A DNA stretch of 64,000 nt, from positions 1-64,000 of the forward strand of contig NZ_CALXYQ010000008.1 in assembly GCF_944393015.1 (NCBI RefSeq), read 5' to 3'. The notes under the pieces are model-generated. The model was given only the letters and a program-made list of their open reading frames with translations. It ran no database searches and was not told the DNA's origin. This stretch comes from an uncultured Brachyspira sp. (GTDB taxonomy: Bacteria; Spirochaetota; Brachyspiria; Brachyspirales; Brachyspiraceae). The position numbers and the translations under genes were made by a program. Of this stretch, positions 54,718 through 61,621 are shown piece by piece (position 1 is the stretch's first letter; every line of letters begins with the position of its first letter).

Positions 54718-55671
54718 ATGATGAAGAAAATAAAAATATCTGAATTAGATAATCAAGCCCTTTTAGATTTGGGGCTTTCAAAGGAAAGACATATTCTTTT
54801 TGTGGATGATATAGGTATAAAGAAAGATAATATACCAGCTTTGAATGAACTTCTAAAAACTAGACAAGATTTCTTTATTAATTTATCATCAGAAAAGAAT
54901 GAAAGTAATAAAAATTATATAAGCGGTAATGATCTGCTTACAGCTTTGCCTGAAATGAGAAATCTTATATATCATGCATCGCTAAAGTATCCTTTAAAAA
55001 ATATTTCTATATTTGCCAAACTTATCAATTTGAGAAGTTTACATTTATACGGCGACTTACCTAAAGATATGGAATTAAAGCCTCTTGATAATATAGAAAA
55101 TTTGGAAAGTGTTTATATAGAAAATGGACTTACATTAAGACAAGATGTTTATTTATCTATGAAAAGCACAATAAGAGAAATAGGTGCCGGAACATTTAGA
55201 ATGGAATCTTTTGATAAGAATCCTAATCTAAAAAAAATAGCTGTTCTCACAGGAGTTTCTCATGAAGAAGAAATTCCTAAAAAACTTCCTGAACTAGAAG
55301 AACTTTATATTGAAAAAGGAAAAAATATAAGATCATTTAATTTTCTATCAGAAATGAAAACACTTAAAACTTTGGAATTAAATAATATACCTTCTCTAAA
55401 AGAAATTCCTGATTTAAGTAATTTAGAAAATTTAACAAAAGTTATTTTAACTAATCTAAGAAATCTTGAGAATATGGATGCAATATTAAATCACCCTAGA
55501 ATAAGAACTTTAATATTAGAAAATATAAAATGCTTTAATATAGATATGCTTTCAAAAGAAACAGCTCCAAGATTAAAATATATATCAGTTGTCAGCGATG
55601 ATAAAAATTGGGATAAAAGAACAAAAAAGTTACTAGAAGAAAAAGGATACAAGGACTATAATGAAGATTAG
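54718..55671 (+). CDS. Leucine-rich-repeat-like protein
   Basis: A 317-residue protein without signal peptide. From about residue 85 it shows irregular leucine-rich units (LINLRSLHLYGDLP, LENLTKVILTNLRNLENMD, RIRTLILENIKCF) of 20-24 residues, so it is probably a protein-binding solenoid in the cytoplasm. The first 80 residues are unrecognised. It overlaps the nitrilase gene by 11 bases, which suggests coupling. The function is unknown. Confidence 0.72.
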   Translation: MMKKIKISELDNQALLDLGLSKERHILFVDDIGIKKDNIPALNELLKTRQDFFINLSSEKNESNKNYISGNDLLTALPEMRNLIYHASLKYPLKNISIFAKLINLRSLHLYGDLPKDMELKPLDNIENLESVYIENGLTLRQDVYLSMKSTIREIGAGTFRMESFDKNPNLKKIAVLTGVSHEEEIPKKLPELEELYIEKGKNIRSFNFLSEMKTLKTLELNNIPSLKEIPDLSNLENLTKVILTNLRNLENMDAILNHPRIRTLILENIKCFNIDMLSKETAPRLKYISVVSDDKNWDKRTKKLLEEKGYKDYNED

Positions 55672-56458
55672 TATCTTGGAATTCGATATACAAAAAGACA
55701 AGTATAAAAACCTAGAAATAATAAATAATCATTTAAAAAATATAAGTACTAAAGAAAAATCTGATTTGATAATACTTCCTGAATTATCTTCTAATGGTTA
55801 TTTATTTGAAAATAGAGATGAATTAAGTAAAACAGCTGAAAATATAAAAGACGGTATATTTATAAATGGTATATCTGAAATTTCAAAAGAATATAATACT
55901 TCTATAATAGCAGGATTTGCTGAAAAGTTTGAAGATAAAATTTATAATTCTGCTGTGATAATAGATAAAGGAAATATTAAAGGCATATACAGAAAAATAC
56001 ATTTATCCGATTTTTAAAAGAAATTCTTTGACTCTGGAGATATAAATAATGCTGATTTAATATTCAATATAAACGGCATTAATATATCAGTACAAATATG
56101 TTTTGATTTATGGTTCAATGAAATATCAAGAAAACAAATATTAAATGGAAGCAATTTGATATGCGTACTTGCTAATTTCGGTTCTAATACTACTTTTGAA
56201 ATAGCTAGAATAAGAGCAATAGAAAATTTAACTCCTCTAGTATTATGCAATCGCATAGGTATAGAAAAAAATTCAATTATGGAAGCATCTTTCATAGGCA
56301 AAAGTTTTATATGCGATGAAACAGGAAAATTACTCACAAATATAAACGAAAATCAAAACAATAAGATAATAAAAGCTGAAATAGAAATAAAAAACAAAAG
56401 ACAAAATATAATATGTTCTGATTTTATGGAAGAAATAAAAAGGCATTATACAATTTAA
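55661..56458 (+). pseudogene. Nitrilase/carbon-nitrogen hydrolase gene with one in-frame stop
   Basis: A 265-codon gene interrupted by TAA at 56015-56017; the frame continues unchanged on both sides. Before the stop are the Glu (ILPELSSNGYLF) and Lys (YRKIHL) motifs, after it the catalytic Cys (VQICFDLWF) and ARIRAIENLTPLV. All three catalytic residues exist but are split between two parts. The codon falls in the loop after RKIHLSDF, a region that usually reads xxExxxFxxGD. A single substitution explains it. No frameshift is needed. It is either a recent pseudogene, a sequencing error, or read-through; the first is most likely. Confidence 0.8.
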
Positions 56459-56495: not shown

Positions 56496-56507
56496 ATATA
56501 CAATATA

Positions 56508-58064
56508 TTATACCAAAACCCTTCTTACTAATTTATTATCATCGTTTTTGCCGCCTATAGGTATATTTGAAGCAGGTACGGCTCTTTCCCTTCCCCAATC
56601 TCTTATATACTCTATTTTTTCAGGGCTAGTCTTTGAAAGCGGAATAACATTTTTAAGTGCATTTATAATAAGCTCACTTGTAAACTTAAGATCATCATTT
56701 GCAATAACCCTATACGCTACATCTCTAATTGATGATTCTAAATCTGCACCGGTAAAGCCGTCAGTTATTTCAATAAGTTCTTTTAATGTATTTTCATCTA
56801 CAGAAGAATTCAAATATTTTTTTAAATACAAATTAATAATATCTTTTCTCTCCTCTTCTGAAGGCAAATCTATAAAGAATAATTCATCAAATCTTCCTCT
56901 TCTTAAAAGCTCTGAAGGAAGTTCGGATACATCATTTGCAGTTGCAACAACGAATACCATCTTTTTGCATTCCTGCATCCAAAATAAAAACTGACCTATC
57001 ATTCTAGTTGTAACGCCTGAAGAATCAGAACCGCCGCCTGAAAGTCCCTTCTCTATTTCATCTATCCATAAAACACATGGGGAAACTCTTTCAGCAGTTT
57101 GAAAAGCTTCTTTAAGCTGCTGCTCACTCTGACCAACATACTGTCCCTGAACAGTGGCAAAATCTAATCTATAAAGAGGTAAATTCCAATACGAAGCAAC
57201 CGCCTTAGCAGAAAGAGATTTTCCGCATCCAGGTACTCCTACTAATAATATTCCTCTAGGCGGATTTAATCCTCTTTTTGTTAATTCATCTCTCTTTTCT
57301 GATACCTGAAGCTTCTTCTTATCATTAAGCCAATTCTTTAATCCTCCAAGTCCTCCTACATCTGCTATATCAGATGATACTTCTATTTTTTCAAGACCGT
57401 TTATATCTGAAAATAATTTATCTTTTGCAAATTTTAATTCAAGCAAATCAGCTTTCTTTATATGTCTGCTTGCTATCAAAGAAACTATTACATTCTGTAT
57501 TTCTACTTTAGTAATACCTGTAAGAGTTAAAGCAGCTTCTCTATAATCATTTTCGTCCCAATCAACTTTTATGCTATTTTTATAAGGTTCTATATTTTCT
57601 GCTATAATATCATAAACCTCATCTTCTGAAGGCAAATCCAAATCTAAACTCATACCCAATCTCTGTAAATTAGACCATACAGTATCCTGAGTAATAACTA
57701 TAATAGAAGCACCTTTTTCTTCTGCTAAATTTACTATATCAAAAATATATCTTGCAGTAGTTGTATCTGCATCCAATTCTGAAACATCTGTAAAAATAAA
57801 AGTTAAATTAGCCTTTAAATTTATTTGTTCAGCTATAAAATCTAAAGCTCCTATAACTGTTTTATCATCATTAACAGATTTTTCTGTAACTATATCATAC
57901 ATACCTTTTGATAATGTATGAACATAAAAAGGCAATGAAAGATCCTTAGCTGTTTCTCTCAAAATATCTAATGCTCTTTGTCTTTCTATTGTATAAAAAG
58001 GAATAAAAGGTATTCTAGCAAGGGAATATCTTTTTAATTTTTCTTTACATTCTTTATAATTCAT
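56508..58064 (-). CDS. AAA+ ATPase, Ycf46-like
   Basis: A 518-residue ATPase. Residues 1-220 form a degenerate AAA-like domain without P-loop (IPFIPFYTIERQRALDILRE), as in Ycf46-type proteins. The active AAA+ module has Walker A GVPGCGKS (276-283), Walker B VLWIDE (331-336) and arginine finger RRGRFD (388-393). It should assemble into a ring and remodel a protein target. It is the last gene of a five-gene operon, starting one base after the 152-residue gene. GGAG precedes the ATG. The target is unknown; the four upstream proteins are candidates. Confidence 0.85.
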   Translation of the reverse strand: MNYKECKEKLKRYSLARIPFIPFYTIERQRALDILRETAKDLSLPFYVHTLSKGMYDIVTEKSVNDDKTVIGALDFIAEQINLKANLTFIFTDVSELDADTTTARYIFDIVNLAEEKGASIIVITQDTVWSNLQRLGMSLDLDLPSEDEVYDIIAENIEPYKNSIKVDWDENDYREAALTLTGITKVEIQNVIVSLIASRHIKKADLLELKFAKDKLFSDINGLEKIEVSSDIADVGGLGGLKNWLNDKKKLQVSEKRDELTKRGLNPPRGILLVGVPGCGKSLSAKAVASYWNLPLYRLDFATVQGQYVGQSEQQLKEAFQTAERVSPCVLWIDEIEKGLSGGGSDSSGVTTRMIGQFLFWMQECKKMVFVVATANDVSELPSELLRRGRFDELFFIDLPSEEERKDIINLYLKKYLNSSVDENTLKELIEITDGFTGADLESSIRDVAYRVIANDDLKFTSELIINALKNVIPLSKTSPEKIEYIRDWGRERAVPASNIPIGGKNDDNKLVRRVLV

Positions 58065-58065
58065 A

Positions 58066-58524
58066 TTATACTCCTAAATCATTTACTCTAGTACTCTTTA
58101 TTATCTTCTTTAAAAATCCTGTTCTATCTGAAGCAGCGGAATCTTCTAAACTCTGCTGTACTGTATCAGCTGAACTTTTTATAAACTCTACAAATTTATC
58201 AGAATACTCCTTAGACACATTCAATATAGACTGTGCTTTAACTATCTTCAAAAGAAAAGTATATTCTCTTTTTAAATTGTTTAATGCAGGAGATAAAATA
58301 TCAATATTTGTTGTTTTACCTGTAATAGAGTCAAATTTTTCATCTGCTTTTTTCATTCTATACTCTATAGTTTCTTGCAGCTTTGTGAATAATCTCTCAT
58401 AATTTCCAGATTCTATAACACCATTATTTATTGCTTCAAGTATTTCAGTATCTGAAGGAGATGAACTTTTTAATGTATCTAAAATTTTAGTCCATTCAAA
58501 ATATGTTTTTGGAGCTTTTATCAT
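58066..58524 (-). CDS. Small helical protein of the AAA+ operon
   Basis: A 152-residue protein predicted to be all helical, without membrane segment or recognised domain (MIKAPKTYFEWTKILDTL at the start, then a long helix with IEYRMKKADEKFDSI). It lies between the acidic protein (15 bases) and the AAA+ ATPase (one base), so it is translationally coupled to the latter. It may be an adaptor or substrate; this is inference from location only. AAGGA precedes the ATG. Confidence 0.7.
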   Translation of the reverse strand: MIKAPKTYFEWTKILDTLKSSSPSDTEILEAINNGVIESGNYERLFTKLQETIEYRMKKADEKFDSITGKTTNIDILSPALNNLKREYTFLLKIVKAQSILNVSKEYSDKFVEFIKSSADTVQQSLEDSAASDRTGFLKKIIKSTRVNDLGV

Positions 58525-58539
58525 AATATATTCCTTAAA

Positions 58540-58929
58540 TTATTTTCTTCTTACCCTTTTTATAGGTACAGCCGGAGGCATCAAATCCCATTTAGGAAAA
58601 CTTTCAGACATATCATTATAAGAATTAAGAAGACTTGCCCTAGGCTGTATTATAATCTGATCATTTACAGAATTTTCTTCTTCTGTTTCTTCTTCCTCGT
58701 CATCTTCTTCGTCGTCATAGTCATCATCTTCGTCATAGTCATCATCATCGTCTTCGCTATCTTCCACATCTTCATCATCTGAATCATTATCATATTCTTC
58801 ATCTTCTAAATTTTCAGCATCATTTACATCATCATAGTTATCAGTATTTTCAGACTCCTCTTGATTTTCATCTTTATCATCAATAGGTTCTAAACCATCA
58901 ACTTTTTCATTGTCATCTAAAATAATCAT
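58540..58929 (-). CDS. Very acidic small protein of the AAA+ operon
   Basis: A 129-residue protein. Residues 8-90 are almost entirely Asp, Glu, Asn and Ser, so disordered and strongly negative. The tail (about 93-129) is different: QPRASLLNSYNDMSESFPKW, a Pro-rich bit and a basic KRVRRK end, which could be a docking motif. ATG at 58929 with AAGGA six bases earlier is preferred to TTG at 58935. Codon bias and operon position support a real gene despite low complexity. Confidence 0.65.
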   Translation of the reverse strand: MIILDDNEKVDGLEPIDDKDENQEESENTDNYDDVNDAENLEDEEYDNDSDDEDVEDSEDDDDDYDEDDDYDDEEDDEEEETEEENSVNDQIIIQPRASLLNSYNDMSESFPKWDLMPPAVPIKRVRRK

Positions 58930-58965
58930 AAACAATCCTTAATATAAATTACACATTTAAAAACT

Positions 58966-60663
58966 TTAATTTGTTAATGTTGCAGAAGATATACTATTCA
59001 AGAAATCTATAACCCTATTATAATCGCTGTCCTTCTCTGCATAAAAACTTCTGTAATCCACAACTTCAGCCAAAATACCTCTTAAAACCGTAAGAGATTT
59101 TTCTAAATATTCATCATATTCTCTATTGATCTTATTTATACTATCTTTATAATCCTTGTTTAATTTATATATCTTATATCCTGCCAATCCTAGTACAACA
59201 ACAGATGCTATTATATGTAAATTGCTTAGTAAGAATGCAGCTATAACAGCTATAACACCTACTGTAATAGAAGCTGGAATCCATTTTTTCTTGCTGAGTT
59301 CGTATGTTCTCTCTCTATTAATATGTTCTGTTAAAGACTGAACGAGTTCTTCTTCATTTGATCCGTCCTGAGTAACACCATGCCAATCTTTTATTCTTAT
59401 ATCTATATTTGTTGGCACTTCTGCTCTGCTTTTAGCTGTTAAATCTGTATATGCATCTATAATCCAATCTTTAGATAAAGACACAGCAAGTTTCTGTGTG
59501 GCTACGAGAGCCCCTGTAGCCTCAGGAAACAATGCTATATTTGTAAGATGTTCTGAAAAATCACTGTATTCTTCATAAGCCTGAAACTCAGAATCAAATC
59601 TTTCTTCTGCAGTTTCTGTATCTCCCTCTTCTTCTACAATAAGTTCATTTTTTCTTAATAGTGCTCTTTTAGGTAATTCTTCATTATCATAATTATTTAC
59701 TAAATTATCTAATATCTCATCTATTTTATCTGATATCATAGCTACATTTTTTACTTCGGCATTAAAGATATCATAAAAATAATCATATATATCCTCATGA
59801 CTATATGCCCAATTAATTACTTCTTTAAGTTTAGGCCAAGTTTCGCTATACTCCTGCAAAAGAGGATATTCTTTATCATCTAAATCAACTATTTGATCAT
59901 ATAAAGCATTGCTCCATTGTTCTCTTTGATTCTCTATAAATCCGCTTTTACTTGAAAGTTCATCTATCCAAAAAGCAATTTTCTCAGAGCATAAACCTTT
60001 AGCATCAGGACCAAATAAACCGCTCGCAAATGCATCTAAAACAACAACTATTCTTCTCTCCATCTTTGACGGATCCTGCATAGAAAAATATCTGTCAAGC
60101 CAAGTTAAAGCACCATTGAATTTTCCTGCCCTTCTGCTAATCAAACAGAAAAGCAAACTTGTTTTTTCATCATCTCTTCTAATTGCTTCTTTCAGAGCTT
60201 TTTCAGCCAATTCTCTATCATCAGATATCCAAGCAGAAAGAGCTATCAATGCAGGAGCAAGCCAATACCTAGGAGCTTTCATCATAAGTTCCTCAGTAGC
60301 ATTTGCCATAGTTTCTTTTCTTACAATACCCACATCATTAGCATTTAATATTCCAACAGTATGCCTTCTCACTTCATCATAATATCCGAAATTTTCTTCT
60401 ATTTCCTGCTTCAATATCATTATGCTTTGTTTAGCATCTGCCAAAGCAGCTATTCTTCTTGACTCTCCTACAAATTCTTCAAACTCATCTCTTAAATTTA
60501 TAAATTCAGAATAAAAATTATCAACTTTTCCATCAACCTGAATAACTCTATCATCAACATTATTAACAATAGAAGAGATATGATATACCCTCTCAGATAT
60601 AGCCGCCAAATTAGCTTCTATAGCGGAAAGATTAGCTCTTGAGACTAAACGATCATTAGACAT
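58966..60663 (-). CDS. Large coiled-coil/membrane protein of the AAA+ operon
   Basis: A 565-residue protein I do not recognise. Residues 1-90 form a coiled coil (IEANLAAISERVYHISSIV and following). Residues 120-230 look like helical repeats (RELAEKALKEAIRRDDEKTS). Two adjacent hydrophobic helices (about 468-505, ASITVGVIAVIAAFLLSNLH and IASVVVLGLAGYKIY) form a membrane hairpin near the end, followed by another helical segment. A strong GGGAGG precedes the ATG. It probably anchors the system at the membrane. Confidence 0.72.
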   Translation of the reverse strand: MSNDRLVSRANLSAIEANLAAISERVYHISSIVNNVDDRVIQVDGKVDNFYSEFINLRDEFEEFVGESRRIAALADAKQSIMILKQEIEENFGYYDEVRRHTVGILNANDVGIVRKETMANATEELMMKAPRYWLAPALIALSAWISDDRELAEKALKEAIRRDDEKTSLLFCLISRRAGKFNGALTWLDRYFSMQDPSKMERRIVVVLDAFASGLFGPDAKGLCSEKIAFWIDELSSKSGFIENQREQWSNALYDQIVDLDDKEYPLLQEYSETWPKLKEVINWAYSHEDIYDYFYDIFNAEVKNVAMISDKIDEILDNLVNNYDNEELPKRALLRKNELIVEEEGDTETAEERFDSEFQAYEEYSDFSEHLTNIALFPEATGALVATQKLAVSLSKDWIIDAYTDLTAKSRAEVPTNIDIRIKDWHGVTQDGSNEEELVQSLTEHINRERTYELSKKKWIPASITVGVIAVIAAFLLSNLHIIASVVVLGLAGYKIYKLNKDYKDSINKINREYDEYLEKSLTVLRGILAEVVDYRSFYAEKDSDYNRVIDFLNSISSATLTN

Positions 60664-60685
60664 GAATAAACACCTCCCATAATAA

Positions 60686-61174
60686 TTATTTTGATATTAC
60701 TGCTGTTGAACCATCACTCATAACAGCAATCATGAACTTTTCATAAACTTCTATAAATTCGTATTGAGGATGCTGACATAAAGACCTTGCAGATTCAAAA
60801 CCATTAGGTAATTTTTGATTGCTTTTATAATGTTCTATTATCATGATACCTGAAATATCTAAAGTATGAACATCATAAGTATCCCCTAAATAACATTTAC
60901 CTAATACACCGATTAAATTAGATGCTACAAAAATAGAAGAAACATCAGCAAATTCTTCCTTTATTGTACTGAGCAATTCCTCTTTTTGTTTTTGAGACAT
61001 CATTACATCTCCAGCATCCAAAGCTTTTATAGCTTCCATATACTTATCAGATCTCTTTTTTCTAAGTTTCTCTCTCAATACTTTCTCATCAACTTTTAAT
61101 CCATTCTTTTTTGAGGTGCTTACATTAGTTTCAATTTTTTGGGATTGTGTTGTATTAAAAATCGGTTTAGGCAT
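60686..61174 (-). CDS. Unknown protein, first gene of the AAA+ operon
   Basis: A 162-residue soluble protein. The first 50 residues are Lys/Ser/Thr-rich and probably flexible; the rest (about 55-162) is a compact mixed domain (EEFADVSSIFVASNLIGVLG, then TYDVHTLDISGIMIIEHY). No family is recognised. ATG at 61174 is chosen because the longer frame to 61213 would run through promoter-like TATAAT sequence and lacks a ribosome site. It is followed 22 bases later by the coiled-coil gene. Confidence 0.68.
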   Translation of the reverse strand: MPKPIFNTTQSQKIETNVSTSKKNGLKVDEKVLREKLRKKRSDKYMEAIKALDAGDVMMSQKQKEELLSTIKEEFADVSSIFVASNLIGVLGKCYLGDTYDVHTLDISGIMIIEHYKSNQKLPNGFESARSLCQHPQYEFIEVYEKFMIAVMSDGSTAVISK

Positions 61175-61240
61175 AAAAATACTCAACTTTTTTTTATTAT
61201 AATATAATATCATGATATATAATTATGTCAATAATATTTT

Positions 61241-61294
61241 AAAAAAAATAATTATAATTAATTTAAAAATACGGTTTTTAAATTAATTATAATT
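61241..61294 (-). terminator. Perfect 20-bp hairpin with T tail, upstream of the AAA+ operon
   Basis: Bases 61250-61269 and 61275-61294 are perfect complements around a five-base loop, and on the minus strand eight Ts follow (61248-61241). It stands in the 447-base gap before the AAA+ operon and would end any transcript begun at 61.5 kb. Confidence 0.75.
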
Positions 61295-61518
61295 TAAAAA
61301 ACATACTTATCATGTTAAAATAAATATAAGCGTTACAAAAAAAATATTTTTTAAAAAAACAGTACATTATACATGATTTTAGGTATATAATAATAAAAAA
61401 AACAACATTTTCAAATATTAGAATTTTGATACATTTCAATCATTTATAGTATATTCAACGCTTTTCGAGAGAATTTAACTAGAGATTATTTTTCATATAC
61501 TACATAATCAACTTTTTT
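61245..61518 (-). ncRNA. Candidate small RNA
   Basis: A minus-strand unit with its own promoter (TTGACA 61556-61551, 19-base spacer, TATAAT 61531-61526) and a strong terminator (61241-61294). No open reading frame longer than a few codons lies between them. The expected RNA is about 270 bases. The promoter is a near-copy of the one before the AAA+ operon (61.18-61.25 kb), so a duplicated promoter region without product is the alternative. Confidence 0.3.
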
Positions 61519-61564
61519 TTATTGTATTATAATAACATAATATGTAATTATGTCAATAATATTT

Positions 61565-61606
61565 TAAAAAAATAAAGTATTATCAATTATTTGATAATAC
61601 TTTATT
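61565..61606 (-). terminator. Terminator after chemoreceptor gene
   Basis: A perfect 16-bp stem (61606-61591 with 61586-61571), loop of four, followed on the minus strand by Ts. It lies 15 bases after the chemoreceptor stop. Confidence 0.88.
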
Positions 61607-61621
61607 AACTTCAACAAATTA

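What the first reader, a model, noticed from the sequence alone, without database searches (positions are those of the whole stretch)
56508..61174. Uncharacterised five-gene AAA+ operon
Five genes with gaps of 22, 36, 15 and 1 bases: a soluble unknown, a large coiled-coil protein with a C-terminal membrane hairpin, a highly acidic disordered protein with basic tail, a small helical protein and a Ycf46-like AAA+ ATPase with a dead first AAA domain. The set looks like a membrane-bound remodelling machine with its own adaptor. I know no described system of this composition.
Basis: partly seen in the sequence, partly recalled or inferred. Interest (0 to 1): 0.7.

Follow-up and report, generated by a model that had tools for sequence, protein, structure and literature searches.

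The report
Mobile five-gene membrane AAA+ module
A mobile block of five genes that travel together in very different bacteria encodes what looks like an ATP-driven machine anchored in the cell membrane; it matches no described system, and in some gut bacteria it is wired to a pump-like ATPase and to toxin genes used in bacterial warfare.

Summary
Five genes (A-E, minus strand, 61174-56508) form a discrete cassette: in seven relatives of the same genus the flanks are joined without it, so it is a ~5.1 kb insertion. Across Bacillota, Pseudomonadota, Fusobacteriota, Acidobacteriota and Actinomycetota, 52 of 53 adequately covered loci carry all five genes, ordered ABCDE or BCDEA, on chromosomes, plasmids and a satellite-phage record. 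A-D match no Pfam, NCBIfam or PADLOC family; E is a two-domain AAA+ ATPase with a dead first domain. C's acidity is peculiar to this genome; its conserved part is a C-terminal peptide [FL]PxWDxxPP...RR. In gut Clostridia the module sits beside a HerA-type ATPase (F0), a membrane protein carrying the same RKVL motif that ends E, and polymorphic toxin/immunity genes. Other F0 loci, one of them elsewhere in this genome, have dynamin-like GTPases instead. Best reading: a membrane-anchored AAA+ remodelling machine used in microbial conflict. Module, mobility and linkage are shown; the mechanism is inferred.

The parts
60686..61174 (-). Gene A: 162-aa soluble protein, disordered N-terminus (MPKPIFN...) plus an alpha/beta domain; invariant R41, S42, D53, E74, C94, H103, H115, Y138, E142
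   Evidence: ORF; conserved in 72 sequences; model pLDDT 78, no convincing fold match
58966..60663 (-). Gene B: 565-aa coiled-coil / TPR-like helical protein with a C-terminal hydrophobic hairpin (residues 460-496)
   Evidence: ORF; 84 sequences; model pLDDT 86; TPR-like residues 93-196
58540..58935 (-). Gene C: disordered protein (highly acidic only here), conserved C-terminal peptide FPKWDLMPPAVPIKRVRRK
   Evidence: motif in 83/83 homologues
58066..58524 (-). Gene D: 152-aa helical protein with conserved SLEDSAxxDRTG motif
56508..58064 (-). Gene E: 518-aa two-domain AAA+ ATPase; degenerate AAA domain (about 1-228), active AAA domain (Walker A GVPGCGKS, Walker B VLWIDE), conserved tail RAVPAS...RRVLV
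56500..61621 (.). Inserted cassette (about 5.1 kb) absent from relatives of the genus, whose flanks are joined directly
61204..61231 (-). Promoter-like site TTGACA-16-TATTAT with extended -10, 30 bases upstream of gene A
   Evidence: 11 of 12 matches; a consensus match only
61529..61556 (-). Second copy of the same promoter-like site, within an 85-bp direct repeat (61179-61263 / 61504-61588, 87%)

Best explanation
The cassette is a horizontally mobile, self-contained module that encodes a membrane-anchored AAA+ machine. B (coiled coil, TPR-like repeats, C-terminal hairpin) is the membrane scaffold. E, probably a hexamer with one inactive and one active ATPase tier, is the motor. D is a small helical adaptor and C a flexible tether that presents a conserved C-terminal peptide. 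A, with invariant Cys, His and Glu residues, is a regulatory or catalytic subunit. Partners are recruited through short R-[RK]-x-[VI]-L tails, and E uses ATP to assemble, dismantle or pull on a B-based membrane complex. The module serves microbial conflict: in gut Clostridia it is coupled to a HerA-type pump and polymorphic toxins, filling the slot that dynamin-like GTPases fill in other such loci. SHOWN: five-gene integrity, insertion, distribution, motifs, linkage to HerA/toxin loci. INFERRED: complex formation, membrane remodelling, conflict role, the role of each subunit.
For: All five genes together in 52/53 loci over several phyla. Precise insertion with empty sites in 7 relatives and sporadic carriage (B absent from 60 relatives; about 9 of 299 genomes of one Clostridia family) point to an accessory function. 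Membrane hairpin and long coiled coils in B; active AAA domain behind a dead one in E. Shared short motif: C-terminus of E (71/81), D (20/83), B (20/89) against 15/1193 background proteins; the related motif in membrane protein f1 8/8 against 0/653. Core and F0 co-occur in 6 of 299 genomes where about 1 is expected (hypergeometric p = 6e-5; 0.002 without the two genomes already known to have both). Of 39 F0 loci about 19 have GTPases, 9 have the core, 1 has the core plus a doubtful GTPase. Toxin and immunity identities: Gln_amidase, LHH, WHH/colicin DNase, Endonuclea_NS_2, SUKH, YezG-like.
Against: Most core copies, this one included, have no HerA or toxin gene nearby; only 4 of 30 core-bearing genomes had F0 anywhere, apart from one marginal hit, so the toxin link may be secondary. 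No direct evidence of complex formation, membrane localisation or ATPase activity. The F0 loci were partly chosen through core loci, so the exclusivity of GTPase and core is not an unbiased count. TPR-like matches of B are common for helical models.
Confidence: 0.42

Rival explanations
1. Anti-phage or anti-plasmid defence module: the complex senses infection at the membrane and E triggers a blocking or abortive response.
For: Mobile, sporadic, compact cassette; carried on plasmids and in a Streptococcus satellite-phage record; the active domain of E resembles the ATPase of the IetAS defence pair (PADLOC IetA 111 bits).
Against: No clear enrichment of known defence genes among 138 close neighbours: the specific hits (Wadjet JetB/JetC, type IV restriction enzyme, PD-Lambda-1) fall on single proteins. 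No recognised effector domain in A-D. In Clostridia it is linked to toxin loci, not to defence genes.
Confidence: 0.28
2. Membrane-protein quality control or chaperone: E extracts or disassembles membrane complexes under stress, with B as docking platform.
For: The nearest solved relatives of E by sequence are CDC48/VCP-type unfoldases; zinc-ribbon membrane proteins with M48 peptidase, lectin-like or YARHG domains lie next to some Clostridial cores.
Against: Presence/absence within genera and movement as a cassette are unusual for housekeeping quality control; no dedicated protease is encoded.
Confidence: 0.17
3. The core is itself part of a protein-export or delivery apparatus for polymorphic toxins; stand-alone copies export cargo encoded elsewhere.
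For: F0 is a HerA/FtsK-superfamily ATPase next to the core; toxins with shared N-terminal [FY][DE]DC repeats and variable ends lie between E and A in L021, L040, L046, L047, L068.
Against: Toxins follow F0, not the core: F0 loci without the core also have toxins, and cores without F0 showed none between E and A.
Confidence: 0.13

Closest known systems
Ycf46 / SpoVK-type (COG0464) two-domain AAA ATPases
   Same: degenerate first AAA domain followed by an active CDC48-like AAA domain; PHROG 8638, function unknown, matches nearly full length (340 bits)
IetAS anti-phage pair (IetA AAA ATPase + IetS protease)
   Same: active AAA domain of E aligns with IetA
   Different: far below the curated cut-off (87 of 510 bits); no protease among the five proteins; five genes instead of two
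SGI1 sgiAT (subtilisin-like toxin + AAA antitoxin related to SpoVK/Ycf46/Vps4; PMC10954446)
   Same: mobile-element cassette with an AAA ATPase of the same broad superfamily
   Different: two genes, a protease toxin, no membrane protein
Polymorphic toxin systems (Zhang et al. 2012, PMC3482391)
   Same: Clostridial core loci contain toxin and SUKH-type immunity genes
   Different: the export routes seen tabulated there (T5/T6/T7SS, PVC, TcdB/TcaC, PrsW and others) do not include this core, nor HerA with dynamin-like GTPases
Vps4/CdvC (ESCRT) remodelling ATPases
   Same: works-like analogy: AAA ATPase acting on a membrane-associated helical protein
   Different: CdvC model 91 of 650 bits; no ESCRT-III match for B

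Membership tests
Two-domain Ycf46/SpoVK-type AAA+ ATPase (gene E only) | N-terminal degenerate AAA domain without Walker A, then an active AAA domain | tested here: met
   hhalign of the two domains of E, E 1e-3; Walker A 0/41 and 41/41
CDC48/VCP (TIGR01243) | whole-protein score above curated cut-off | tested here: not met
   124.7 against 802.65 bits; first domain lacks Walker A
IetAS defence system | IetA-type ATPase above curated cut-off | tested here: not met
   NF042959 87.4 against 510 bits
IetAS defence system | partner serine protease in the operon | tested here: not met
   no protease match in A-D above threshold
CdvC/Vps4 (ESCRT) | CdvC model above cut-off | tested here: not met
   NF041006 91.4 against 650 bits
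CdvC/Vps4 (ESCRT) | ESCRT-III-fold polymer partner | tested here: inconclusive
   no ESCRT-III match for B, but a missing match is not decisive
Type VII secretion | EssC/FtsK-type ATPase and WXG100/LXG substrates in the locus | tested here: not met
   neither among the five genes; Clostridial F0 is DUF87/HerA
Polymorphic toxin system (expanded Clostridial loci only, not the window cassette) | toxins with constant N-terminus and variable C-terminal toxin domain, followed by an immunity gene | tested here: met
   L021 HNH-like end + SUKH immunity; L068 Gln_amidase; L040/L046/L047 metallopeptidase-like ends by inspection
Known anti-phage defence system | A-E match PADLOC components | tested here: not met
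   only E matches, and only over its AAA domain
Known anti-phage defence system | protects against phage | not testable with these tools
   needs plaque assays

The most novel reading that the evidence does not exclude
The five-gene core is a new class of bacterial membrane-remodelling machine, an AAA+ counterpart to dynamin, that mobile elements carry and that HerA-driven toxin systems can use in place of dynamin-like GTPases to get proteins through or out of the membrane: a previously undescribed protein-delivery route.
Probability: 0.2. Interest if true: 0.9.

Novelty: categorically new. Interest (0 to 1): 0.68.

Why it matters
Four of the five proteins belong to no described family, yet the set is kept as a block in hundreds of species across phyla and moves as a cassette. 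Such conservation means a real, unrecognised machine. The link to HerA ATPases, dynamin-like GTPases and polymorphic toxins offers a way to find out how gut Gram-positive bacteria handle or deliver toxins that have no recognised secretion signal.

Tried and rejected
Structure searches: A gave no match above Z 3.5 and B only TPR-like helical repeats, so no function was taken from them. Weak family hits were treated as chance: COG3_N, HblC, ComFB, Cmr5, and the annexin match of D (44 residues, E 5e-5). Defence-island reading: not supported by the neighbour scan. The first idea that the toxins belong to the core was dropped, because they track F0. A transposon origin of the cassette was looked for at the junctions: no transposase and no clear target-site duplication. 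Structure jobs with rows from annotated records were not accepted and were rerun with permitted rows only. Literature searches for Ycf46 and for HerA + dynamin + toxin found no description of either system.

Full report
OBSERVATION. The five ORFs are present, intact and co-directional. A begins at 61174, B at 60663, C at 58935 (TTG) or 58929 (ATG), D at 58524, E at 58064; E ends at 56508. The stated gaps are right. B has one hydrophobic stretch at residues 460-496, which the model shows as two helices beside long coiled coils (mean pLDDT 86). E has an intact second AAA domain; its first domain lacks Walker A in 41 of 41 homologues yet aligns with the second (hhalign E 1e-3). One detail needs correcting: the acidic tract of C (44% D+E) is peculiar to this genome. 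In 83 homologues the median is 12.5%, lengths run from 57 to 329 residues, and the only constant part is a C-terminal peptide [FL]PxWDxxPP with a basic end, present in 83/83. In Clostridia the N-terminus of C often carries a zinc ribbon (by inspection).

A MOBILE CASSETTE. B has no match in 60 relatives, 25 of them of the same genus. Seven relatives of the genus carry both flanks without the cassette. In six of them the flank ending near 56,500 (3' end of a nitrilase gene) and the flank starting near 61,620 (3' end of a chemoreceptor gene) are at most about 30 bases apart; the seventh lacks the nitrilase. The cassette is thus a ~5.1 kb insertion whose only genes are A-E. Its coding GC (31%) is a little above the window's 27% but within the spread of other genes (28 +/- 4%). 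Nothing at the junctions identifies the mobilising enzyme.

DISTRIBUTION. Homologous sets lie on plasmids of Comamonas and Komagataeibacter, in a Fusobacterium record and in the record of a Streptococcus oralis satellite phage. A scan of 84,980 species genomes with the B alignment confirmed 256 loci, of which the best 80 were kept. Of 53 loci with enough flanking DNA, 52 carry all five genes. Two orders exist, ABCDE and BCDEA, and they follow the B tree closely. The window's copy groups with Anaerocolumna, Ruminiclostridium and Clostridium zeae (SH-aLRT 100), all ABCDE, and its E is 70-72% identical to theirs, which fits acquisition from Clostridia. Carriage is sporadic: about 9 of 299 genomes in one Clostridia family.

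WHAT THE PROTEINS ARE. A-D match no Pfam, NCBIfam or PADLOC family above threshold. A is a small alpha/beta protein with invariant R41, S42, D53, E74, C94, H103, H115, Y138 and E142 in 72 sequences, which suggests an active or metal site (inference); its fold has no convincing match. B is a helical scaffold with TPR-like repeats. E is nearest to CDC48-type ATPases but far below every curated cut-off. A short terminal motif R-[RKQ]-x-[VIL]-[LMIV] (x optional) ends E in 71 of 81, D in 20 of 83 and B in 20 of 89 loci, against 15 of 1193 neighbouring proteins. A shared tail on several subunits suggests one common docking site (inference).

LINK TO HerA-TOXIN LOCI. In seven Clostridial loci (L021, L040, L046, L047, L059, L061, L068) the core lies directly downstream of two genes; L090 has a related pair, and in L075 the contig ends just after B. 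F0 is an ATPase of about 890 residues of the HerA/DUF87 family. f1 is a membrane protein with N-terminal cysteine motifs that carries R[KRE][VI]L[LIV][NG] in 8 of 8 copies, against 0 of 653 background proteins: nearly the tail of E. In five loci the genes between E and A are polymorphic toxins with a common N-terminus rich in [FY][DE]DC and different C-termini, followed by known or candidate immunity genes: an HNH-like end with SUKH immunity (L021), a glutamine deamidase (L068), metallopeptidase-like ends by inspection (L040, L046, L047). In the 299-genome family, core and F0 co-occur in 6 genomes where about 1 is expected (p = 6e-5; 0.002 without the two genomes already known to have both). 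A divergent set (L198) runs F0 - toxin - B - B - D - E - B.

F0 also exists without the core. This very genome has, on another contig, two dynamin-like GTPases, a small membrane protein, F0, an LHH nuclease toxin and a SUKH immunity gene in a row (L163); four other genomes of the genus have F0, with varying toxin genes behind it. Across 39 F0 loci about 19 have GTPases, 9 have the core, 1 has the core with a doubtful GTPase, and the rest have neither (two loci counted as core by weak AAA hits were reassigned on inspection). The toxins therefore belong to F0, and the core takes the position of the dynamin-like GTPases. Since dynamin-like proteins remodel membranes (established knowledge), this is the best indirect evidence that the core does too. 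The F0 loci were partly chosen through core loci, so the exclusivity is suggestive only. Most cores have no F0: 4 of 30 core genomes had it, besides one marginal hit.

MECHANISM. I favour a membrane-anchored AAA+ machine: B scaffold, E motor, D adaptor, C tether with a docking peptide, A regulatory or catalytic subunit, acting in microbial conflict (0.42). Rivals are phage defence (0.28), membrane quality control (0.17) and toxin export proper (0.13). A scan of 138 neighbouring proteins showed no clear defence-island signal and mostly ordinary genes.

NOVELTY. No description was found in PADLOC, Pfam, NCBIfam, PHROGs or held papers. Papers outside the held library and defence catalogues after 2023 could not be checked. 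Composition and conservation are those of an undescribed kind of system; the mode of action remains inference.

Noticed in passing
L163 (own genome, contig C44) 3996-12568: Row of two dynamin-like GTPases, a 136-aa membrane protein, a HerA/DUF87 ATPase, an LHH nuclease toxin and a SUKH immunity gene; the F0-toxin-immunity order recurs in other genomes of the genus and widely in Lachnospiraceae. Looks like an undescribed HerA-based polymorphic-toxin system worth its own study.
   Followed up: partly
window 55661-56458: Nitrilase-family gene next to the insertion is split into two reading frames here but is one open frame of about 269-285 codons in relatives: a pseudogene in this genome or an assembly error.
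   Followed up: partly
window 61179-61263 and 61504-61588: 85-bp direct repeat (87%) upstream of gene A, each copy holding a near-consensus promoter (TTGACA-16-TATTAT, extended -10): a duplicated promoter region.
   Followed up: partly
L033, L039, L044 (Streptococcus oralis); L004: The cassette lies next to the ribosomal protein S4 gene, with an integrase remnant in L033 and L039; the satellite-phage record Javan368 ends exactly with gene A, so the record may include a neighbouring cassette rather than a cargo gene set.
   Followed up: no
L198 9265-16558; L050 9944-16531: Divergent cores with two or three tandem B paralogues around D and E.
   Followed up: no
window gene D, residues about 96-139: Local similarity of the D profile to an annexin repeat (44 positions, E 5e-5 against PDB sequences); probably convergent.
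   Followed up: no
L091-L161 (viral contigs): More distant relatives of E (26-45% identity) occur in many phage genomes, in which no B, C, D or A was detected nearby; role unknown.
   Followed up: partly
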